A stretch of 64,000 bases of DNA, taken from positions 1 to 64,000 of the forward strand of contig JAGBBV010000015.1 of the NCBI GenBank assembly GCA_017938315.1. Direction: 5' to 3'. The position numbers and the translations under genes are program-made. Source of the stretch: Lachnospiraceae bacterium (lineage in GTDB: Bacteria; Bacillota; Clostridia; Lachnospirales; Lachnospiraceae). Below the pieces are notes generated by a model. That model was not told where the DNA came from. It saw nothing but the letters and a program-made list of their open reading frames with translations, and did not search any database. Of the stretch, positions 36,394 to 46,861 are shown in pieces. Within the stretch, counting starts at the first letter, position 1. Each line of letters begins with the position of its first letter.

Positions 36394-36444
36394 TGTTTAT
36401 GTCAGATGAATTTTAATATAATTTATACAGAAGGAGTGATTAAC

Positions 36445-38400
36445 GTGGCAGAGAAACACGGCAGTTTATCAATTAACAGTGAAAACATATTTCCGATTAT
36501 TAAGAAATGGTTGTATTCAGACCATGATATTTTTTACAGAGAGTTAATCTCTAACGGATGTGATGCGATTACCAAGTTAAAGAAACTTGATATGATGGGG
36601 GAATATTCTCTTCCGGAAGGATATAAGGCGAAGATTCAGGTGGTGGTTAATCCTGAACAGAAAACACTGAAGTTTATAGATAACGGTGTTGGTATGACGG
36701 CGGATGAAGTAGAGGAATATATCAATCAGATTGCTTTTTCCGGTGCCACCGATTTTATTGAAAAATATAAAGATAAGACTAATGAAGATCAGATTATCGG
36801 GCATTTTGGATTAGGATTTTATTCAGCATTTATGGTGGCTGATGAAGTGCACATCGATACATTGTCATGGCAGAGTGGTGCCACTGCAGTTCATTGGGAA
36901 TGCGACGGTGGTACAGAGTTTGATATGAAGGACGGAGATAGAACAGAAGTGGGTACTACTATTACCCTTTTCCTAAATGAGGATGTTCTTGAATTCTGTA
37001 ACGAGTATAAAGCAAGAGAAGTGATTAAGAAATATTGTTCCTTCATGCCCACAGAGATTTATCTTTCAAAAGAAAATGAAACCGATGAGGAAAAAAAGGA
37101 AGAACTGTTAAACGAAACACTTCCTCTCTGGGCAAAGCATCCCAATGAATGTACGAAGGAAGAATATCTTGAATTTTACCGTAAAGTATTTCAGGATTAC
37201 AAAGAGCCGTTATTCTGGATTCATTTAAATATGGATTATCCATTTAATTTAAAGGGAATTTTGTATTTCCCCAAGATTAACATGGAGTATGAATCCATTG
37301 AAGGTGTCATCAAATTATATAATAATCAGGTGTTTATTGCAGATAACATCAAGGAAGTAATTCCGGAATTTTTAATGCTTTTAAAAGGTGTGATTGATTG
37401 TCCGGATTTACCCCTTAACGTATCAAGAAGTGCACTTCAGAACGATGGATTTGTAAAGAAAATATCTGATTATATTTCCAAGAAGGTGGCTGATAAGCTG
37501 GCCGGAATGTGTAAGACAGAAAAGGAAGAATATGATAAATACTGGGATGATATCAGTCCCTTTATCAAGTTTGGCTGCTTAAAGGACGACAAGTTCTGTG
37601 AAAAGATGACAGACTATATCTTGTTTAAGAATCTTGATGGCAAGTACATGACATTGCCTGAGTGCCTTGAGGTGAATAAGACAGATCCTGACGAAGAAGA
37701 AGAAAATACCGATGAGCAGGCGGCAGAAGTACTTGATGCAGATGGTAATATTGTGACGGATGAAGAAACTGCTTCTGAAGAAGCAAAAGAAAAGATTATT
37801 TATTATGTAACCGATGAAAAACAGCAAAGTCAGTATATCAATATGTTCAGAGCAGCAAAGATGGATGCTGTTATTCTGACACATAATATAGATCAGCCTT
37901 TTGTTTCCCAATTGGAAGCAAAGAATGAAGGCATTAAATTCCAGAGAATTGATGCAGATCTTACCGAAACTTTTAAAGCCAAAACAAGCAAAAAGGTGGA
38001 AAAAGAATTCGAGGCAGCGGCTGAAAATATCGGAAAGGTTATGAAAAAAGCAATTAAAAAGGACAAAATTGCCATCAAGGTAGAGAAATTAAAGAACAAA
38101 AAGATTTCTTCCATGATTACCCTTTCCGAAGAAAGCAGAAGAATGCAGGATATGATGAAGATGTATTCCATGCCCGGAATGGATATGGGAGATTTTGGCA
38201 AGGAAGGTGAAACACTTATTTTAAATGCAAACCACCCCCTTGTACAGTATGTTATGGAACATACGGAAGGTGATAATGTGGGTATGATTTGCGAACAGCT
38301 TTACGATTTGGCGCTCATTCAGCATGCACCCCTTGAACCGGAGGCGATGAGCAAGTTTGTGGCGAGAACCAACGATATCATGTTATTACTTACAAAGTAA
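36445..38400 (+). CDS. htpG: Molecular chaperone HtpG (Hsp90)
   Basis: Bacterial Hsp90, an ATP-dependent dimeric chaperone. I start at GTG 36445, with AAGGAG at 36431-36436 and 8-nt spacing, giving 651 residues; the ATG at 36406 falls almost at the transcription start and has no site. The GHKL ATP pocket shows ELISNGCDAITK, DNGVGMTADE and GHFGLGFYSAFMVAD. The middle domain holds LPLNVSRSALQND with the catalytic-loop Arg. An acidic insert (DEEEENTDEQAAEVL, ~410-450) is longer than in E. coli HtpG, and the C-terminal dimer domain is complete. It has its own CIRCE-controlled promoter. Confidence 0.97.
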   Translation: MAEKHGSLSINSENIFPIIKKWLYSDHDIFYRELISNGCDAITKLKKLDMMGEYSLPEGYKAKIQVVVNPEQKTLKFIDNGVGMTADEVEEYINQIAFSGATDFIEKYKDKTNEDQIIGHFGLGFYSAFMVADEVHIDTLSWQSGATAVHWECDGGTEFDMKDGDRTEVGTTITLFLNEDVLEFCNEYKAREVIKKYCSFMPTEIYLSKENETDEEKKEELLNETLPLWAKHPNECTKEEYLEFYRKVFQDYKEPLFWIHLNMDYPFNLKGILYFPKINMEYESIEGVIKLYNNQVFIADNIKEVIPEFLMLLKGVIDCPDLPLNVSRSALQNDGFVKKISDYISKKVADKLAGMCKTEKEEYDKYWDDISPFIKFGCLKDDKFCEKMTDYILFKNLDGKYMTLPECLEVNKTDPDEEEENTDEQAAEVLDADGNIVTDEETASEEAKEKIIYYVTDEKQQSQYINMFRAAKMDAVILTHNIDQPFVSQLEAKNEGIKFQRIDADLTETFKAKTSKKVEKEFEAAAENIGKVMKKAIKKDKIAIKVEKLKNKKISSMITLSEESRRMQDMMKMYSMPGMDMGDFGKEGETLILNANHPLVQYVMEHTEGDNVGMICEQLYDLALIQHAPLEPEAMSKFVARTNDIMLLLTK

Positions 38401-38471: not shown

Positions 38472-39734
38472 ATGTTTGAAAAAAATCTGCGAAGTACACA
38501 GAGAGATAATACAGATTTAGGAAAACTTCAAATCAACGTCACATCATCCATAGGCCTGATTCCAATACAGGATGCAACAGTTACCATATCCTATACCGGT
38601 GTGCCTGATACAACAATAGAGAGGATAAGTACAGATTCTTCAGGGCAGACTCAAGTGATAGATTTGCCGGCACCACCCATTGAATACAGTGTGGAACCAT
38701 CAAGTGAGATGCCTTATTCCGAATATAATATTCAGGTAGAAGCACCGGGGTATGAAACCGTTAATATAACAGGAACGGAAATTCTGCCTGATGTAACAGC
38801 ACTGCAACCGATTTCCATGAATCCTCTTGCACGAACACAAGTGCCGGAGGAAACCATTGTGATTCCGGAACATACATTATACGGAGAATATCCGCCTAAA
38901 ATTCCGGAGGATGAAATTAAGCCTATGGATGAGAGCGGAGAAATTGTTTTAAGCAGAGTGGTGATACCGGAGTTTGTGGTAGTACATGATGGTGCACCTC
39001 AGGATTCTACGGCACAAAACTATTATGTGAGATATAGGGATTATATTAAAAATGTGGTATCTTCTGAGATATATGCTACATGGGATGAAAATGCCATATA
39101 TGCCAATACGCTGGTGATTATGTCATTTACATTAAACAGGGTGTATACGGAATGGTATCGAAGTAAAGGGTATAATTTTACAATAACGTCTTCCACTGCT
39201 TATGATCAAAAATGGATTTACGGTAGAAATATATATGATAACGTAGGAAGAATAGTGGATTCCATATTTGCAAACTATTTGTCAAGACCGGGTGTAAGGC
39301 AGCCTATTTTTACATCCTATTGTGACGGACAGCGGGTGACCTGTGACGGACTGAGCCAATGGGGGTCGCAGTACCTGGCAAATGAAGGATATACGCCTAT
39401 AGAGATTATCAGATATTATTATGGAAATGATATGTACATTAATTCGGCAGACAGTATTTCAGGTGTTCCTTCTTCTTGGCCCGGATATGATTTGACAATC
39501 GGATCTTCAGGAGATAAAGTGAGGCAATTGCAGCAACAGCTTAACAGAATAGCAAGAAATTATCCGGCAATTCCTACTATATCGGCAGATGGAATTTATG
39601 GGGCAAGAACAGCAGAGGCAGTAAGGACATTTCAAAGGGTGTTTAATTTGCCCCAGACAGGTATAACGGACTATCCCACATGGTATAGTATTTCGAATAT
39701 TTATGTAGGAGTATCCAGAATTGCAGAACCGTAA
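38472..39734 (+). CDS. SpoIID-like protein with peptidoglycan-binding domain
   Basis: A 420-residue protein. Residues ~17-115 form a beta-sandwich resembling carboxypeptidase-regulatory/PEGA repeats (DATVTISYTG ... YNIQVEAPGYETVNI). Residues ~180-335 match the SpoIID/LytB pattern (VVSSEIYATWDENAI, then GLSQWGSQYLANEGYTPIE and IIRYYYG), although the usual catalytic surroundings are altered. Residues ~340-415 are a PG_binding_1 domain (GDKVRQLQQQLNRIA, then DGIYGARTAEAVRTFQRVF). No signal peptide or membrane anchor is visible, unusual for a wall enzyme. It may act during sporulation, where loss of a signal is tolerated in the mother cell, but that is inference. Expression may depend on the hairpin over its ribosome binding site. 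Confidence 0.75.
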   Translation: MFEKNLRSTQRDNTDLGKLQINVTSSIGLIPIQDATVTISYTGVPDTTIERISTDSSGQTQVIDLPAPPIEYSVEPSSEMPYSEYNIQVEAPGYETVNITGTEILPDVTALQPISMNPLARTQVPEETIVIPEHTLYGEYPPKIPEDEIKPMDESGEIVLSRVVIPEFVVVHDGAPQDSTAQNYYVRYRDYIKNVVSSEIYATWDENAIYANTLVIMSFTLNRVYTEWYRSKGYNFTITSSTAYDQKWIYGRNIYDNVGRIVDSIFANYLSRPGVRQPIFTSYCDGQRVTCDGLSQWGSQYLANEGYTPIEIIRYYYGNDMYINSADSISGVPSSWPGYDLTIGSSGDKVRQLQQQLNRIARNYPAIPTISADGIYGARTAEAVRTFQRVFNLPQTGITDYPTWYSISNIYVGVSRIAEP

Positions 39735-39762: not shown

Positions 39763-39792
39763 TTGCAGAAAAGGTTTGAATAATGGTATACT
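39763..39792 (+). promoter_or_regulatory. Promoter of the four-gene block
   Basis: TTGCAG (39763-39768), 18 bp, and TATACT (39787-39792) preceded by TGG, an extended -10. Transcription would start near 39800. This places TTG 39801 outside a useful leader and supports GTG 39849 as the first start. Confidence 0.65.
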
Positions 39793-39848
39793 ATAAGTAA
39801 TTGAGTTTTATTTCAGAAACACAAGAAATATTCGGAGGAATACAAAAG

Positions 39849-42800
39849 GTGCACAGCGCAGTAGAGAAAATCCTGGCAGGAGAATTTAATCAGAATATGC
39901 ATTCTTTGGATTTTTCGGTTCCGAGGATTGAGTTTTCCGTTCATCCCGGTGAAAAACATGAGGGTAGTTTTCTTATTATTGGACCGGACAATTTGCTCAC
40001 TGAAGGTAATGTGTTTACTAACAGACTTCGTATGAAATGTCTGACGGAGAGGTTTTCCGGTGTGCAGGAGGAAATTGGTTATTGTTTTGATGCTGTGAAC
40101 ATGGAAGAAGGAGAAACGGTCAAAGGGGAATTTTGTATTGTCTCAAACAGGGGAGAATATATGATTCCCTTTGAAGTAACTGTGCGGGCAGAAAGTCTGA
40201 CATCAAGTCTGGGAGATATCAGGAATTTATTTCACTTTACAAATCTGGCAAGGACCAATTGGGACGAAGCCGTAAAACTTTTTTACACAAAGGAGTTTAC
40301 ACAGATATTTAAAGGCACCGATAAACAGTATTATGCTGTTTATAAGGGGCTTTCTCAGGGTGTGAAAAGTGAGCAGAATGTAGAAGAATTTTTGCTTGAG
40401 ATTAATAAAAAACAAGAGATTGATTTTATATTGGAAGAAGAGGAAATCCGCATTCCGGACCCAAGGGACGATGCAGAGTACAAAATAGTGCTTAACAGAA
40501 ATGGATGGGGATTTTCCAAGTTGCAGGTAGATGTTAGCGGGGACTTTATCATCATAGAGAAAACCATGCTCTGTGATGATGACTTTTTGGGCAATTATGC
40601 AAGATTACCCTTTTATATTGCAAAAGAAAAATTGCACGGCGGAAAGAATTATGCAGAAATACATATCCACAATGCGTATTTTTCAAAGACAGTTAAAGTA
40701 ATTGTACATAGTCAGGGTATAAAAACAAGGGTTCCTGGAGTCCGTATACGGAAGAAACATTTAGTCATGGAACTGATGCAGTACTATGAAGGTTTTAGAA
40801 CTAAGAAGATTAATGCCCAATTATGGATGAAGGAAACAGCAGGTATTTTAGAGCGTCTTTCCGAGACGGACGAGAGGGATATCCATACCAAATTGTTTCA
40901 GGCACAATTGTTGATTACACAGGAAAGGTTTAATGAAGCAAAATGGCTGTTAGACCAAATAAAAGACTATGTGGATGCAGATGAACCGGCAGTATATTGC
41001 TATTATTTATATTTAATTACACTTATTATTACAGATGAAGAATTTGTGGAGGAAACAGCAGCACAGGTAGAGCGGATTTTTGTGCAAAACTCGGACAATT
41101 GGAGAATAGCATGGCTTCTGCTTTATCTGTCAGATGAATATACCAAAAGCCCTTCCCGTAAGTGGGTATTTTTGGAGGAACAGTTTAAAAAAGGATGTAG
41201 CAGCCCTGTTTTGTATCTGGAAGCGTATAACCTGATTATGCAGAATCCAACTTTACTCATGAGATTGGAAAGTTTTGAAAAACAGGTGCTTACCTATGCG
41301 GCCAAAAAAGAAATTATTACACCTGTAATTGCACAACAGGTTGTATATTTAGCTGCAAGAGAAAAGGAATATTCCGACAGTGTGTTTTTCTTGTTGGAAA
41401 AATGCTATGATGTAGTGCCGGAAGATGAAACCCTGCAGGTGATATGTACTCTTTTAATCAAGGGGAATCTTGCGGGAGAAAAGCAATTTAAATGGTACGC
41501 CTTGGGAATCGAGAGTAAACTCCGTATTACCAGATTATATGAATATTACATGATGTCATGTGCCATGAGCGATGATATGGAAATACCTAAAATTGTATTG
41601 ATGTATTTTGCTTTTGACAGCAGCCTTGACAGCTTGCATAATTCATATCTATATGCATATATCAATACACACAAGAATGATTTTTCGGAATTATATGATA
41701 GCTATAGGTCTCAGATAGAGCGTTTTGTGATAACCCAAGCTATGCAGGGAAAAAATAACAAATGGCTGGCATCTTTATATCGTAGCGTGCTCACGCCGGC
41801 ACTTATGACGCCGGAGATTGCAAGCGGTCTTTCAAAAGCATTGTTTGTGCATCAGATTAAAATAAAGAGATCGGATATTCAGAAGGTTATTCTTGTTTAT
41901 GAAAAAAGACAGAGCGAAATTGTAATTCCCATCTACGGAAAAGAGATATATACACCAATATATAGTTCGGATGTGCGCGTGCTATTAGAAGATGGTATGG
42001 GTAACCGTTATTGTAGGGAATCTGATTATCAAATGGATAAACTGATGATTCCTGATAAAATTTTGCACATGGCGGAACCTTATTTGACAGGGAATCTGGA
42101 CATTGCATTTTGGCTTTGTGAAAATGGACGCAGCATAGCACCTGTGAGTCACGAAAATGTTTCACAGATGAAATTGGTGGTTGATGCTGATATATTAAGC
42201 GACTCCTTGCAAAAGGAAATGCGTCTTAGATTATTGCACTATTTTTATGACAATGATTATATTGAAGAATTGGACATCTTTTTAAATCGACTTATGTATC
42301 ATCAAATTTCCAGCGCAGATTTTGCTCAAGTGGTACGTTTTCTTGTTGTCAGAGGAATGCATGAAAAAGCCTACGAGTGGATTAGATTAAGTGGTGGGGA
42401 AGGAATTGATGCGAAGCTGACCATGAGACTTTGCAGCCAGATAATTGCAGTGGAAGAAGGATGCGCGGACGAGGTGCTGTCTAATTTGACATTTCGTGCA
42501 TTCAGTGCCGGAAAATACGACGAAAATGTACTTAATTATTTGGTGAAATATTATTCCGGAACTTTAAAGGAAATGAGGGATGTTTGGAAAGCAGCCCGTG
42601 CTTTTGGTGTAGACACTTATGAGATATGTAACCGTATGTTGGTGCAGATGCTTTACACAGGAGCGTATATTGGTGAAAAGATAGAAGTGTTTAAAGATTT
42701 TATTGCCGGTGGAGGCAGATGCGATGTGGAACTGGCATTTCTGGCACAAAGCTGCTTTGATTATTTTGTGGGCGAGAAGATTACGGATGACTATATTATG

Positions 42801-43403
42801 CAAGAACTGCAGAGAGTCATAGAAAGAGAAGAAGAAATTCCTTTGGTTTGTAAACTTGCCTATACCAAATACTACTCCGAGAATAAACAGTCAATTAATG
42901 AGAAGATATCTGTACATTTGGTAGTATTCTTAAGAGAACTTCTTGCAGAAAAAATGTATTTTCCGTATTTTAAAGAGTATTGTGACAGCATTGGATTTAT
43001 GAGGTGTTTTGCGGACAAGACCATGATACAGTATAAGCTGGAAGAAGGCGATAGTGCCGTTATTCACTACCTCATGGAAGAAGAAGGAAGCAGCCGTGGA
43101 GAGTATGCACAGGAAGAAATGGAAGACATGTTTTACGGTATTTGTGTGAAGCAATTTGTTTTGTTTTTTGGGGAAAGATTGCAGTACTACATTACCGAAA
43201 ACAGCACAGGAGCAGAAATTCTTACAGGTAGTGGTACATTGGGACGCAGCGATACCGACAGGGAGCAGAAGGAAAGTAAATATAGCTTAATCAATGATAT
43301 TGCTATCGGAAGGGCGCTTAGGGATGACAATACCGTAGAACGCTTACTGCATGAATATTATGAAAAAGAATTTATCGTGAAGGAGCTATTCCATATTTTA
43401 TAA
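39849..43403 (+). CDS. Large beta/alpha-solenoid protein (DUF5717-like)
   Basis: A 1184-residue protein of unknown function. GTG 39849 has GGAGG at 39834-39838; the frame is open from TTG 39801 but without a site. The N-terminal ~350 residues look beta-rich (FSVHPGEKHEGSFLII, VKVIVHSQGIKTRVPG), possibly Ig-like modules. The remainder is a long run of amphipathic helices in TPR-like pairs (LFQAQLLITQERFNEAKWLL, VYCYYLYLITLIITDE), an alpha-solenoid. I believe it belongs to the Lachnospiraceae family DUF5717 from memory. There is no signal peptide, membrane span or catalytic motif. It is the first of four tightly packed genes, the next being Hsp70/actin-like, so a large scaffold or client-binding subunit is a reasonable inference. 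Confidence 0.75.
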   Translation: MHSAVEKILAGEFNQNMHSLDFSVPRIEFSVHPGEKHEGSFLIIGPDNLLTEGNVFTNRLRMKCLTERFSGVQEEIGYCFDAVNMEEGETVKGEFCIVSNRGEYMIPFEVTVRAESLTSSLGDIRNLFHFTNLARTNWDEAVKLFYTKEFTQIFKGTDKQYYAVYKGLSQGVKSEQNVEEFLLEINKKQEIDFILEEEEIRIPDPRDDAEYKIVLNRNGWGFSKLQVDVSGDFIIIEKTMLCDDDFLGNYARLPFYIAKEKLHGGKNYAEIHIHNAYFSKTVKVIVHSQGIKTRVPGVRIRKKHLVMELMQYYEGFRTKKINAQLWMKETAGILERLSETDERDIHTKLFQAQLLITQERFNEAKWLLDQIKDYVDADEPAVYCYYLYLITLIITDEEFVEETAAQVERIFVQNSDNWRIAWLLLYLSDEYTKSPSRKWVFLEEQFKKGCSSPVLYLEAYNLIMQNPTLLMRLESFEKQVLTYAAKKEIITPVIAQQVVYLAAREKEYSDSVFFLLEKCYDVVPEDETLQVICTLLIKGNLAGEKQFKWYALGIESKLRITRLYEYYMMSCAMSDDMEIPKIVLMYFAFDSSLDSLHNSYLYAYINTHKNDFSELYDSYRSQIERFVITQAMQGKNNKWLASLYRSVLTPALMTPEIASGLSKALFVHQIKIKRSDIQKVILVYEKRQSEIVIPIYGKEIYTPIYSSDVRVLLEDGMGNRYCRESDYQMDKLMIPDKILHMAEPYLTGNLDIAFWLCENGRSIAPVSHENVSQMKLVVDADILSDSLQKEMRLRLLHYFYDNDYIEELDIFLNRLMYHQISSADFAQVVRFLVVRGMHEKAYEWIRLSGGEGIDAKLTMRLCSQIIAVEEGCADEVLSNLTFRAFSAGKYDENVLNYLVKYYSGTLKEMRDVWKAARAFGVDTYEICNRMLVQMLYTGAYIGEKIEVFKDFIAGGGRCDVELAFLAQSCFDYFVGEKITDDYIMQELQRVIEREEEIPLVCKLAYTKYYSENKQSINEKISVHLVVFLRELLAEKMYFPYFKEYCDSIGFMRCFADKTMIQYKLEEGDSAVIHYLMEEEGSSRGEYAQEEMEDMFYGICVKQFVLFFGERLQYYITENSTGAEILTGSGTLGRSDTDREQKESKYSLINDIAIGRALRDDNTVERLLHEYYEKEFIVKELFHIL

Positions 43404-43406
43404 TCC

Positions 43407-44771
43407 ATGGAAGAAGCTGCTAAGCGGAAGTATGGGGTTAAAGTAATGAGTATGTTTGCCGGGCAAAGAGAACAGACCGAAAAAAAGAATATTGGAAAAA
43501 TTATGGTAGGATATGATTTGGGAAAAACATCATCCCAAATCAGTTACTGTACGCCCGATGCATCTCTTGCTGAAACAGTTTCCAGCGTGGCGGGAACAGA
43601 GCAGTTTAATATTCCCACGGTTCTGTGTAAACGAAACGGTGTAAACCAGTGGTATTACGGAAAAGAAGCTTTAAAGTATGCACAAAGCGGGGAAGGTGTC
43701 ATTGTAGAAGACCTTTTGACATTGGCAGTAAACGGTGAGGATGTGCTGGTAGAAGAAGAATGCTATGATCCGGTGGCTTTGCTTACGCTTTTTGTAAAAA
43801 GAAGTTTATCATTGCTTAATATGCAGGTGCCTCTAAAAAATATGGAAGCCATTATGTTTACAGTGGAAGATTTGTCACCCAGAATGGTAGATGTCTTATC
43901 AAAAGTGGCGGCAGGTCTGCAACTTAAGATAAAAAATATATATTTCCAAAGTTATGTAGAAAGTTTTTATTATTATGTTTTGCATCAACCTGCAGAATTA
44001 TGGAAAAATAAAGTTCTGATTTTTGACTATAACCATGACATGAAAAGTTATTGCTTTGAGTGTAACAAAAAAACTGTCCCCCAGGTAGTTTTTATTACAG
44101 GAAAACAATACCCTATTATGCCAAGGGTAACGTTTCCGGAAGAACCTGAAGCGCAAGAGGCATTCAAAAGAGAGATGGATGAGAAATTCATAAGGATTGT
44201 GGAGGGCGAAGTATCTGAGGATATGATCTCTACGGTTTATTTGCTGGGTGATGGATTTAAAGGGAACTGGACAACCCAGTCGCTTAAGATGATTTGCAGG
44301 AACAGAAGAGTTTTTCAAGGAAATAATTTATACAGTAAGGGCGCCTGTTACGGAGCGGTTGAGCGCATATCGCCCAGTGAAGCGGGGAAAGAGCATGTGT
44401 TCCTTGGGAAAGATAAACTTAAGGCTAATATAGGAATGAAAGTGCTCAGACAGGGTGAAGATTCCTATTTTGCTGTTTTAGATGCGGGCACCAACTGGTA
44501 TGAAGCAAAAGCGGATTATGAAGTGATTTTGGATAATGATAATGTTCTTGAGTTTTTGATAACACCGTTAACAGGTGAAAAATTGATAAACCGGCAGATT
44601 ATTTTGGAAGGATTACCGGAGAGACCTAAGCGATGTACAAGGCTGCGGATACAGATTGAAATGACAACTGTAAATCAGGCATCACTAACAATAGAGGATT
44701 TGGGATTTGGTGAAATCTTCCAAAGCAGTGGTAAAGGATGGAGTCAGACCATAAGTTTGTCTGATAAATAA
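43407..44771 (+). CDS. Degenerate Hsp70/actin-fold protein (DUF5716-like)
   Basis: A 454-residue protein with the layout of the Hsp70/actin superfamily. Phosphate-1 loop: VGYDLGKTSSQISYC (~34-48), close to the IGIDLGTTNS of DnaK. A DnaK-like helix region (MVDVLSKVAAGLQLKIKN) follows. The phosphate-2 strand reads VLIFDYNHDMKSY (~203-215), without the glycines normal there, and the adenosine region is VYLLGDGFKGNW (~277) then NLYSKGACYGA. ATP binding is therefore plausible and hydrolysis doubtful. The C-terminal ~110 residues are beta-rich, where Hsp70 has its substrate domain. The start is unsure: ATG 43407 has its AAGGAG 21 nt away, while ATG 43446 has GGGG at 8 nt. It lies 3 bp after the solenoid gene. 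Confidence 0.75.
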   Translation: MEEAAKRKYGVKVMSMFAGQREQTEKKNIGKIMVGYDLGKTSSQISYCTPDASLAETVSSVAGTEQFNIPTVLCKRNGVNQWYYGKEALKYAQSGEGVIVEDLLTLAVNGEDVLVEEECYDPVALLTLFVKRSLSLLNMQVPLKNMEAIMFTVEDLSPRMVDVLSKVAAGLQLKIKNIYFQSYVESFYYYVLHQPAELWKNKVLIFDYNHDMKSYCFECNKKTVPQVVFITGKQYPIMPRVTFPEEPEAQEAFKREMDEKFIRIVEGEVSEDMISTVYLLGDGFKGNWTTQSLKMICRNRRVFQGNNLYSKGACYGAVERISPSEAGKEHVFLGKDKLKANIGMKVLRQGEDSYFAVLDAGTNWYEAKADYEVILDNDNVLEFLITPLTGEKLINRQIILEGLPERPKRCTRLRIQIEMTTVNQASLTIEDLGFGEIFQSSGKGWSQTISLSDK

Positions 44772-44795
44772 TAAGAAAAAGGAAAGGAGATAGCA

Positions 44796-45629
44796 GTGGG
44801 AAAAGTTTTATTATGTACCGGTGAGTATGCAAAGAAGCCATATTATTTTGAAAATGTATGTGTGAATGTCTATTGTATAGAAGAACTCTGCTGTCTGCTT
44901 GCGGCCAATCCTTTTATGATTGATGTAAGTATTATGGATAAAAGTCTGGCAGAATGGATTGAGACAGAATGCGGACTAAAAGATTTAGGGCGTGAGTTGT
45001 TATTGCTACTTAGGAGAGGAATGCAGCCGGGAATCTTTGTAGATACCATAATGGATTATGTAAAATACAATGAAGTTTTGGAAAGAAAGAAAATTAAAGA
45101 TACACTTACGGACAGCGCAGGGCTGTCGGAATGTGAGCGGAAAAAGAAGCAGGGGGATTTCTTACTTCAAAACGGAAAATACCAGATGGCTATTACAGAG
45201 TATGACAAAATTTTAAGAGAACTGGAAGATGGGCAGGAGAATTTTGGAGCCGGTATTTACCATAATATGGGTGTGGCATACAGTAAACTCTTTAGATTTG
45301 AGAGTGCTGCTAAGTATTTAAAGAAAGCTTATGAACTTGGCGGCAATAAAGAATCAGGCATACAGTATCTGATTGCAAAAAGGGAAACAATGAGCGAGAG
45401 TGAATATATTTCTTTTCTTGCTGAGAATGGGCAATACTATGAACTTTCATTGGAAGTTGAGGCGCGGTATAAAGAAGTAGAGACACAGTTTGAAGCGACC
45501 AGGGAAAGCAGAATGATATCGGCACTATCCATTTACAAAGAGGAAGGTAATACGGCTTCCTACTATGAAGAAATTGACAGAGTAATTACCGGATTAAAAG
45601 AAACTTACAGGGGAATTGTTGTCAGTTGA
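44796..45629 (+). CDS. TPR-containing protein of the four-gene block
   Basis: A 277-residue cytoplasmic protein of unknown function, GTG start with GGAGA 7 nt upstream. The N-terminal ~110 residues form a domain with CTGEYAKKPYYFEN and CIEELCCLLAANPFMID, probably specific to this family. From ~115 on are TPR-like helix pairs: KKKQGDFLLQNGKYQMAITE, then IYHNMGVAYSKLFRFESAAK, followed by a long helical tail. In eukaryotes and bacteria TPR proteins often serve as Hsp70 co-factors, and this gene is 24 bp after an Hsp70-like one, so a co-factor role is suggested but not shown. Confidence 0.75.
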   Translation: MGKVLLCTGEYAKKPYYFENVCVNVYCIEELCCLLAANPFMIDVSIMDKSLAEWIETECGLKDLGRELLLLLRRGMQPGIFVDTIMDYVKYNEVLERKKIKDTLTDSAGLSECERKKKQGDFLLQNGKYQMAITEYDKILRELEDGQENFGAGIYHNMGVAYSKLFRFESAAKYLKKAYELGGNKESGIQYLIAKRETMSESEYISFLAENGQYYELSLEVEARYKEVETQFEATRESRMISALSIYKEEGNTASYYEEIDRVITGLKETYRGIVVS

Positions 45630-45676
45630 TTGACCGGGAACAATAGAACAACCGGTGAAAGGGAAAGCAAAGGCGA

Positions 45677-46861
45677 ATGGGAATTATAAAGAAATTTCTG
45701 ACATGGAAAAAGAATAGGGAAAATCCGCTTTATGAAATAGATGATTGGAATGAGATTGTCTATGACAGGGATGACTTGCAGATTGATGATAAAAGTCAGA
45801 GAGAGGACTATATAAAAGGCTGTCTTGAGCAGATTGCGGAGGCATCCAAAGAACTGGAAACATTACAGTTTGAATACAATATGGTTACATCCCACTTAAA
45901 GGACATGGAAGAGATTGAAGTGTTGCCGGAAGAGGAAAAAGAATTACTGCGGGAATGTGCCAAAAAGATAGAGCATTTGGAAAAGCAACAGTCCGGTTAC
46001 AAGTCGCGTAAAACCAGAATGGATGAAAGCAAATACCGGCAAATGGAACGAATGGAAGAAGAGGTCCAGGAAGGCTGTAAGAAATTAAATGATGCCGAGG
46101 AATATCAAGATTTGATTAAACGTGACCTAAGAAGGTTAGATGCGGAAAAGCAGGCTTATTTATATAGAAGAAGAGAACTGGTACATGTCCTGGAAGATAC
46201 AAGAGCTATGGCGATTGTCTGTAGTACGGCGGTTGTAGTGTGTATTTTAGCGCTTATGGTGATGCAGTTTGGATTTGAAATTAATGCAAAGCTTGGTTAC
46301 CTGGCGGCAGCAGCACTAGGTGCACTTGCAATCACTCTCATTTTTGTAAAACATAATAATGCGATATCAGAGCTTTCCCGTGTGGAAAAAGGAATCAGCA
46401 GACTGATTCAGTTACAGAACACAGTTAAGATCCGATATGTGAACAATACCAATTTACTGGATTATTTATATTTAAAATATAATGTTTCCAGTGCAGGTGA
46501 GCTTAGCGAGCATTGGAAGCAATATATTACCGAAAAAGAAGAACGGGAAAAGTACAAACAGGCTGAAAAGGAGCTTGACCGTCATCAACAGGATTTGCTT
46601 CATGAATTGCGCAGATATCAGGTGAAGGATCCTATGGTGTGGCTTCATCAGATACCGGCTCTTCTTGACAAGAAAGAAATGGTAGAAATCAGGCATAATC
46701 TGATTATCAGAAGACAGTCACTTCGAAGGAGAATGGATTATAATAAAGAAGTGATTGCAGCAAAAGCACAGGCGGAAATCAAAGATTTAGTGGAAAAGTA
46801 CCCGAGATATGCACGGGAAATTTTAGATATTGTGGATGACTATGAAAAAGATTTTTCTTAA
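45677..46861 (+). CDS. Coiled-coil protein with central pair of membrane spans
   Basis: A 394-residue protein of unknown function. Residues ~45-170 are a charged coiled coil (EELLRECAKKIEHLEKQ style), two membrane spans follow (~177-198 and ~205-225, with a short outside loop), then a second coiled coil (~230-385; EKEEREKYKQAEKELDRHQQ). The two arms would lie together on the cytoplasmic side, a hairpin-like membrane anchor. There is no enzymatic motif. It closes the four-gene block after a 47-bp gap; the next gene has its own promoter. It probably tethers the other three products to the membrane (inference from order only). Confidence 0.75.
   Translation: MGIIKKFLTWKKNRENPLYEIDDWNEIVYDRDDLQIDDKSQREDYIKGCLEQIAEASKELETLQFEYNMVTSHLKDMEEIEVLPEEEKELLRECAKKIEHLEKQQSGYKSRKTRMDESKYRQMERMEEEVQEGCKKLNDAEEYQDLIKRDLRRLDAEKQAYLYRRRELVHVLEDTRAMAIVCSTAVVVCILALMVMQFGFEINAKLGYLAAAALGALAITLIFVKHNNAISELSRVEKGISRLIQLQNTVKIRYVNNTNLLDYLYLKYNVSSAGELSEHWKQYITEKEEREKYKQAEKELDRHQQDLLHELRRYQVKDPMVWLHQIPALLDKKEMVEIRHNLIIRRQSLRRRMDYNKEVIAAKAQAEIKDLVEKYPRYAREILDIVDDYEKDFS

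What the first reader, a model, noticed from the sequence alone, without database searches (positions are those of the whole stretch)
39849..46861. Uncharacterised four-gene block: solenoid, Hsp70/actin-like, TPR and membrane coiled-coil proteins
Seen: four adjacent + strand genes with gaps of 3, 24 and 47 bp under one extended -10 promoter (39763-39792). They encode a 1184-residue beta plus alpha-solenoid protein, an Hsp70/actin-fold protein with clear phosphate-1 loop (VGYDLGKTSSQISYC) but degenerate phosphate-2 loop, a TPR protein, and a protein with two coiled-coil arms around a membrane hairpin. Known: Hsp70s work with TPR co-factors, and actin-like ATPases form filaments tethered by coiled coils. 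I recall the first two as DUF5717/DUF5716 of Lachnospiraceae, without function. Inference: a membrane-tethered chaperone or cytoskeletal complex. This is my first candidate for the undescribed system.
Basis: partly seen in the sequence, partly recalled or inferred. Interest (0 to 1): 0.82.

Follow-up and report, generated by a model that had tools for sequence, protein, structure and literature searches.

The report
Motorless Hsp70 scaffold in Lachnospiraceae
This four-gene operon, found in nearly all sampled members of a major gut-bacterial family, looks like what is left of a larger machine built around four Hsp70 chaperones: it keeps the one Hsp70 that has lost its ATP-site motifs, together with its scaffold proteins, and its job is still unknown.

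Summary
The block is real. Genes 1 and 2 are DUF5717 and DUF5716. With the TPR gene they form a core that is nearly universal in the family: gene 2 in 195 and gene 1 in 196 of 200 genomes, one per genus; 0 of 393 genomes outside the family, only one of them from the same order. The membrane gene is accessory, in 91 of 200.

Many sister families carry a larger cassette: the same scaffold, four tandem lidless Hsp70s (A to D; D ends in a VWA domain), a GrpE-tipped protein, a TPR protein and sometimes the membrane protein.

Gene 2 is the family's Hsp70-B (hhalign E 1e-46; tree 100/100). Its predicted structure is Hsp70-like throughout, without the phosphate-2 motif and most of the GrpE-binding lobe. 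In three genera it is fused to the TPR protein.

Best reading: an ATP-independent, Ssz1-like pseudo-Hsp70 on a scaffold, left after the Hsp70 motors were lost. The descent is well supported; the function is inferred.

The parts
39784..39792 (+). extended -10 promoter element TGGTATACT
   Evidence: sequence; TGNTANNNT within 160 nt upstream in 67 of 73 loci against 14 of 72 control stretches
39834..39838 (+). GGAGG ribosome-binding site of gene 1
   Evidence: sequence
39849..43403 (+). gene 1, 1184 aa scaffold (DUF5717_N + DUF5717): two N-terminal MSP/ASH/PapD-like beta-domains, alpha-solenoid, beta-domain, second solenoid, third beta-domain, C-terminal helix
   Evidence: model; structural matches; in sister families a beta protein plus a solenoid protein, or one longer frame
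43407..44771 (+). gene 2, 454 aa pseudo-Hsp70 (DUF5716), orthologue of sister-family Hsp70-B
43503..43547 (+). degenerate phosphate-1 loop of gene 2 (residues 33-47)
   Evidence: alignment; D37 nearly invariant in 69 sequences
44424..44756 (+). beta substrate-binding-like domain of gene 2 (about residues 340-450), no lid after it
44796..45629 (+). gene 3, 277 aa: N-terminal domain followed by TPRs
   Evidence: fused to gene 2 in three genera
45677..46861 (+). gene 4, 394 aa: heptad helix, membrane hairpin, second arm; accessory member
46208..46348 (+). membrane hairpin of gene 4 (segments 178-196 and 206-224)
   Evidence: hydropathy, two segments in 78 of 78 homologues

Best explanation
The block is the reduced descendant, in the Lachnospiraceae, of a larger chaperone machine of the order. 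Shown by sequence or model: sister families carry the same scaffold with four tandem Hsp70s (A, B, C, D), a GrpE-domain protein and a TPR protein; gene 2 is the orthologue of B; B has lost the phosphate-2 motif in all 10 sister sequences aligned; gene 2 has in addition lost most of the stretch that forms subdomain IIB, the lobe that GrpE contacts in DnaK (contact recalled); and no separate A, C, D or GrpE protein was found in the 30 more distant family loci searched. Inferred: gene 2 works without an ATP cycle, in the manner of the atypical Hsp70 Ssz1. It would form a standing complex with the TPR protein (gene 3), docked on the MSP/ASH-solenoid scaffold (gene 1), holding or presenting extended segments of client or partner proteins through its lidless beta-domain, and in just under half of the genera it would be tied to the inner face of the membrane by gene 4. 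Where ATP-driven release is needed, the general DnaK may supply it. The near-universal occurrence in the family and partly shared flanks point to a housekeeping role in handling or assembling proteins. Which proteins is not known.
Against: Sequence alone does not join gene 2 directly to Hsp70: no PDB sequence matches at E 10, the HSP70 model lists five places in the own genome at E 1 but not gene 2, and hhalign with the two own Hsp70s gives only 40-52%. The L147 B protein, the closest sister, does not match HSP70 at 0.01. No J-domain partner, which Ssz1 has (recalled), was seen among the nine proteins of one cassette. Ssz1 leads the structural list only within a tie, and a shared fold shows no function. 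No complex was predicted; ATP binding, peptide binding and phenotype are untested. Gene 4 is missing from more than half of the genomes. Two sampled family genomes lack both gene 1 and gene 2. One hydrophobic segment passes the membrane threshold in 17 of 70 gene 2 proteins, though not in the window's. The direction of change (reduction, not growth) is inferred.
Confidence: 0.6

Rival explanations
1. A membrane-linked actin-like cytoskeletal element: gene 2 polymerises and gene 4 tethers the filament.
For: Hsp70 and actin share the fold (recalled); gene 4 has a membrane hairpin and one heptad arm.
Against: Phosphate 2 and most of subdomain IIB are missing; hhalign with two own MreBs 0.3%; the 50 structural matches shown are Hsp70-superfamily chains; a beta substrate-binding domain follows the NBD; gene 4 is not found in more than half of the genomes.
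Confidence: 0.06
2. A conflict or immunity system akin to the GAP1-N2 GTPase neighbourhoods, some of which include HSP70, GrpE and TPR or FNIII proteins (Kaur et al. 2020, PMC7159879, section 29 read).
For: Similar parts list: HSP70, GrpE, a second reduced HSP70, TPR or beta-repeat protein, with VWA in other such neighbourhoods.
Against: Found in 195-196 of 200 genera of one family, mostly once per genome, where defence genes are usually patchy (recalled); no GTPase or GAP1 among nine proteins of one cassette; PADLOC gives only weak partial matches.
Confidence: 0.1
3. A ribosome-associated or co-translational complex, like eukaryotic RAC, in which a non-cycling Hsp70 positions a partner near nascent chains.
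For: RAC/Ssz1 chains head the structural list, tied with other Hsp70s; no lid, no phosphate-2 motif.
Against: No J-protein partner in the one cassette scanned; no ribosome-binding part was recognised; the ranking by fold is a tie and shows no function.
Confidence: 0.12
4. An assembly or quality-control platform for envelope proteins at the membrane, with gene 4 as an inner-membrane receptor.
For: Two membrane segments in 78 of 78 gene 4 proteins; a SpoIID/peptidoglycan-binding gene is a frequent neighbour (56 of 80 loci); gene 1 N-terminal domains resemble PapD/MSP/ASH domains.
Against: Gene 4 is accessory; no hydrophobic membrane segment in genes 1-3 of the window (signal peptides were not tested with a dedicated program); the SpoIID-like neighbour was counted only in the 80 closer loci.
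Confidence: 0.12

Closest known systems
DUF5716 / DUF5717 (Pfam PF18980, PF18983, PF18984)
   Same: Genes 1 and 2 match far above cut-off.
   Different: Pfam gives no function.
Ssz1 of the ribosome-associated complex (atypical Hsp70)
   Different: No J-protein partner in the cassette scanned; gene 2 has lost most of subdomain IIB and goes with a TPR protein and a solenoid scaffold.
DnaK-DnaJ-GrpE system
   Same: The sister cassettes combine Hsp70s that keep the ATP-site motifs with a GrpE domain.
   Different: Four Hsp70 paralogues in a row, none with an alpha-helical lid, one with VWA in its place, GrpE at the end of a longer protein, no J-protein seen in the one cassette scanned; the Lachnospiraceae locus keeps only the degenerate one.
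GAP1-N2 GTPase conflict neighbourhoods with HSP70 and GrpE (PMC7159879, section 29)
   Same: HSP70, GrpE, a reduced second HSP70 and TPR or beta-repeat proteins in one neighbourhood.
   Different: No GAP1 or GTPase among the nine cassette proteins scanned here; nearly universal in one family.

Membership tests
Hsp70 (PF00012) | Actin-like nucleotide-binding fold followed by a beta substrate-binding domain | tested here: met
Hsp70 (PF00012) | Phosphate-1 DLGTTNS-type loop | tested here: inconclusive
   GYDLG...SQISY: D37 nearly invariant, the TTN residues replaced
Hsp70 (PF00012) | Phosphate-2 DLGGGTFD motif | tested here: not met
   GGGT lost in 10 of 10 sister B and in the 6 Lachnospiraceae rows aligned
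Hsp70 (PF00012) | Subdomain IIB, the GrpE-contacting lobe (role recalled) | tested here: not met
   span 59-79 residues in 67 of 69 gene 2 proteins against 133-180 in DnaK, the second own Hsp70, A, B, C and D
Hsp70 (PF00012) | C-terminal alpha-helical lid | tested here: not met
   15 residues after the beta-domain in gene 2; 151 in own DnaK
Hsp70 (PF00012) | Match to the Pfam model PF00012 | tested here: not met
   gene 2 not among matches at E 1; its sister B protein in L144 does match, that of L147 does not
Hsp70 (PF00012) | ATP hydrolysis and nucleotide-driven peptide release | not testable with these tools
   needs purified protein
MreB / actin-like filament proteins | Profile similarity to MreB | tested here: inconclusive
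   hhalign 0.3%, E 0.2, against two own MreB-like proteins only
DUF5716 and DUF5717 | Match over Pfam's curated cut-off | tested here: met
   362, 999 and 336 bits against 34.7, 25 and 25
Ssz1-type atypical Hsp70 | Stable heterodimer with a J-protein (recalled) | tested here: inconclusive
   no DnaJ match among nine proteins of the L144 cassette; other loci and flanks not scanned for it
GAP1-N2 HSP70/GrpE conflict systems | GAP1 and TRAFAC GTPase genes in the neighbourhood | tested here: inconclusive
   none among the nine L144 proteins; flanks not scanned with Pfam
Known anti-phage systems (PADLOC 2.0.0) | Strong full-length match to a defence model | tested here: inconclusive
   only weak partial matches in 10 proteins (best 5.5e-9, Hsp70-C to part of PDC-M61B)

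The most novel reading that the evidence does not exclude
The order to which the Lachnospiraceae belong had, and in many sister families still has, an undescribed chaperone machine: four tandem lidless Hsp70s, one of them a pseudo-ATPase and one with a VWA domain in place of the lid, served by a dedicated GrpE-tipped protein and carried on an MSP/ASH-solenoid scaffold with a TPR adaptor. In the Lachnospiraceae this machine lost every ATP-burning part and yet is nearly universal as a standing, motorless Hsp70 scaffold.
Probability: 0.65. Interest if true: 0.85.

Novelty: new variant of a known kind. Interest (0 to 1): 0.74.

Why it matters
Lachnospiraceae are among the commonest bacteria of the mammalian gut (recalled), and nearly every genus sampled carries this operon, for which the open-access literature searched here showed no function. 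If the reading holds, it is a natural case of an Hsp70 machine stripped of its motors while the pseudo-Hsp70 and scaffold were kept. That makes it directly testable what a non-cycling Hsp70 is for, a question that I know mainly from eukaryotic examples such as Ssz1 (recalled). The sister-family cassette would be a new chaperone architecture, and DUF5716/DUF5717 would gain a place in the Hsp70 world.

Tried and rejected
Direct searches of gene 2, alone and as a profile, against PDB sequences found nothing, nor did gene 1 as a profile; the link to Hsp70 needed the sister-family B proteins as a bridge. NCBIfam gave no name to genes 1 and 2 and only weak matches far below cut-off for genes 3 and 4. 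The Sec62 match of gene 4 (E 0.026) is below cut-off. The own MreBs were rejected as closest kin.

Flanking genes as clues: the neighbours (htpG, SpoIID-like, amino-acid-type ABC genes, purB, valS, aminotransferase) change between lineages, so no functional partner was inferred. The first clustering mixed coding and opposite-strand frames and was replaced by direct searches. A spread beyond the order was looked for with three kinds of model. DUF models: 0 of 393 outside the family, one of them of the same order. Solenoid model: two weak matches among 245 genomes outside the family, of which G167 was fetched and shows no cassette and G111 was not followed. Hsp70-D with VWA: in 117 other genomes no match runs past position 520 of 692, the VWA part beginning near 505. 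None of the 50 structural rows shown for gene 2 is named an actin; that does not exclude actins. For gene 1 the structural list is filled by the N-terminal beta-domains; the solenoids were barely tested.

Caveats on counts: the HMMs used were built from the same sister loci, except L151, L152 and parts of L147 and L148, so those matches are largely by construction; the independent support is Pfam, on L144 and on selected proteins of L142, L146, L147, L149 and L150. The 12 sister regions were chosen by me from the 50 strong genomes, and the 30 distant family loci from about 195 genomes, ten of them picked as odd or divergent. In one search my greedy ORF choice hid gene 2 of L128, which one search shows. 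Gene 4 is fast-evolving, so 91 of 200 is a lower bound. The 17 of 70 gene 2 proteins with one hydrophobic segment over threshold were not followed.
Full report
WHAT IS THERE. Gene 1 starts at the GTG at 39849, which has a GGAGG site. The extended -10 at 39784-39792 is conserved: TGNTANNNT lies within 160 nt upstream of gene 1 in 67 of 73 loci, against 14 of 72 in a control stretch. Pfam names gene 1 DUF5717_N + DUF5717 and gene 2 DUF5716_C, as recalled; gene 3 has TPRs; gene 4 has no family over cut-off. One paper in the library mentions either DUF, and judging by its title and the start of its abstract in the listing it is on another subject.

HOW COMMON. In 398 genomes drawn across the phylum, gene 2 and gene 1 models each match 5, the same five, all of the window's family; 0 of 393 others match, only one of which is of the same order. 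In 200 genomes of the family, each from its own genus, gene 2 is found in 195 and gene 1 in 196; G426 and G488 lack both. Their titles mostly name Lachnospiraceae or genera that I place there (recalled), with a few other labels on metagenome bins such as Clostridium, Bacillus and Ruminococcus. In these 80 loci, genes 2, 3 and 4 are found in 80, some cut by contig ends, and gene 1 in 79; the exception, L054, begins at gene 2. These 80 are the closest relatives. In 30 more distant loci genes 1-2-3 lie together in all 30, but gene 4 was found in only 9; in one of the others, L131, the contig ends after gene 3. The gene 4 model finds 91 of 200 family genomes. So the core is genes 1 to 3, and gene 4 is accessory.

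GENES 2 AND 3 BELONG TOGETHER. In three genera (G422, G523, G464) one ORF of 698 to 713 residues holds both gene 2 and gene 3. The listing is cut, so three is a minimum.

THE SISTER-FAMILY CASSETTE. In 116 genomes drawn across the order, the gene 2 model matches 70 at E 0.01 or better: 11 of the family, 50 others at 1e-9 or better, and 9 weak ones (1.2e-4 or worse). A solenoid model built from sister loci matches 62: the same 11, all 50, and G600. So 51 of 105 order genomes outside the family carry the solenoid and 54 do not. I fetched 12 of the 50 regions. Nine show, in one order, the scaffold, Hsp70-A, protein X, Hsp70-B, Hsp70-C, Hsp70-D; in L147, D and the TPR protein are each read in two frames. 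L148 is cut by its contig end and shows X-B-C-D; L151 has X-B-C-D with unrelated ORFs between; L152 has only X-B. A gene-3-like TPR protein is present in 10 of 12, a gene-4-like protein in 3 of 12. In L144 Pfam finds HSP70 in all four (1.8e-77, 1.9e-16, 2.5e-57, 2.5e-95), a VWA domain at the end of D and a GrpE domain at the end of X. GrpE is over its cut-off in 6 of 6 X proteins tested. A, C and D keep the ATP-site motifs with small variants; B has lost the GGGT of phosphate 2 in 10 of 10. None of the four has a lid: 8-11, 4-19 and 16-22 residues follow the beta-domain in A, B and C, and 210-216 in D, which is the VWA part. Hsp70-D with VWA was not seen in 117 other genomes of the phylum nor in the own genome: no match runs past position 520 of 692.

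WHAT WAS LOST. The stretch between phosphate 2 and the adenosine motif is 143 residues in DnaK, 177-180 in A, 133-152 in B, 146 in C and 153 in D, but 59-79 in 67 of 69 gene 2 proteins of the family, and 94 and 109 in two. I take the missing part to be subdomain IIB, which GrpE contacts in DnaK (recalled). No separate A, C, D or X was found in the 30 distant family loci (the 80 closer loci were not searched for them). The own genome's HSP70 matches are DnaK, one further Hsp70 and three proteins that I read as MreB- and FtsA-like. L147 is intermediate: whole cassette with subdomain IIB kept, but scaffold and B closest to the family's.

VERTICAL DESCENT. A PLP-type aminotransferase (my reading of the sequence) lies upstream in 13 of 30 family loci, 12 of its 14 frames in the opposite orientation, and divergently in sister loci L146 and L149; valS lies downstream in 9 of 30 and in sister locus L147. 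The place in the genome is therefore partly shared, which favours inheritance over late acquisition. That the change was reduction, not growth, is inferred.

HOW IT MAY WORK. Shown: homology, loss of motifs, fusion, co-occurrence, membrane hairpin. Inferred: a standing complex of scaffold, pseudo-Hsp70 and TPR protein that binds segments of other proteins without an ATP cycle. Near-universal occurrence in the family argues for a housekeeping task and against a defence system; PADLOC shows only weak partial matches.

KNOWN OR NEW. The nearest published neighbourhood found is the HSP70/GrpE theme of GAP1-N2 systems (PMC7159879; section 29 read; other passages). A study of DnaK duplication in bacteria (PMC11019930, passages only) does not mention this cluster in the passages seen. 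Further searches showed nothing on such a cassette in the rows listed; only 10 of 50, 12 of 71 and 12 of 18 papers were listed. The library is open-access only, so a description elsewhere is possible.

Noticed in passing
38472-39734: A SpoIID/LytB-like protein with a peptidoglycan-binding domain lies just upstream; a relative is near the block in 56 of 80 loci (66 have over 3 kb upstream), in both orientations (35 opposite, 21 same).
   Followed up: partly
L134:2-3189 (own genome): A second Hsp70 (563 aa) directly follows, with a 4-base overlap, a 499 aa ORF that reads as a TPR protein: another Hsp70-TPR pair in the same genome.
   Followed up: no
L136:1078-2088 (own genome): An MreB-like gene next to an MreC-like gene (my reading) has an altered phosphate-2 motif (NVGYDTTEIS), unlike the other MreB-like gene (L135).
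   Followed up: no
L131, L132, L166, L169, L171, L174, L176: Seven of 30 family loci have a gene 1 of 1090-1108 aa lacking a stretch around profile positions 750-840; none has gene 4 found next to it (L131 is cut by its contig end).
   Followed up: partly
L128, L146, L149 upstream of gene 1: A CobD/HisC-like aminotransferase (named from its sequence, not scanned) is shared by family and sister loci, mostly divergent from gene 1.
   Followed up: partly
gene 1, residues 16-291: The N-terminal domains structurally resemble HYDIN/CEP192-type domains of the ciliary central apparatus; the Hsp70-B profile also matches the Hsp70A chain solved in that apparatus (7n6g). Probably coincidence.
   Followed up: no
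36406-38400: htpG (Hsp90) lies two genes upstream; a relative is in 33 of 80 closer loci but not among the 22 neighbour families listed for the 30 distant loci, so it is probably local synteny.
   Followed up: partly
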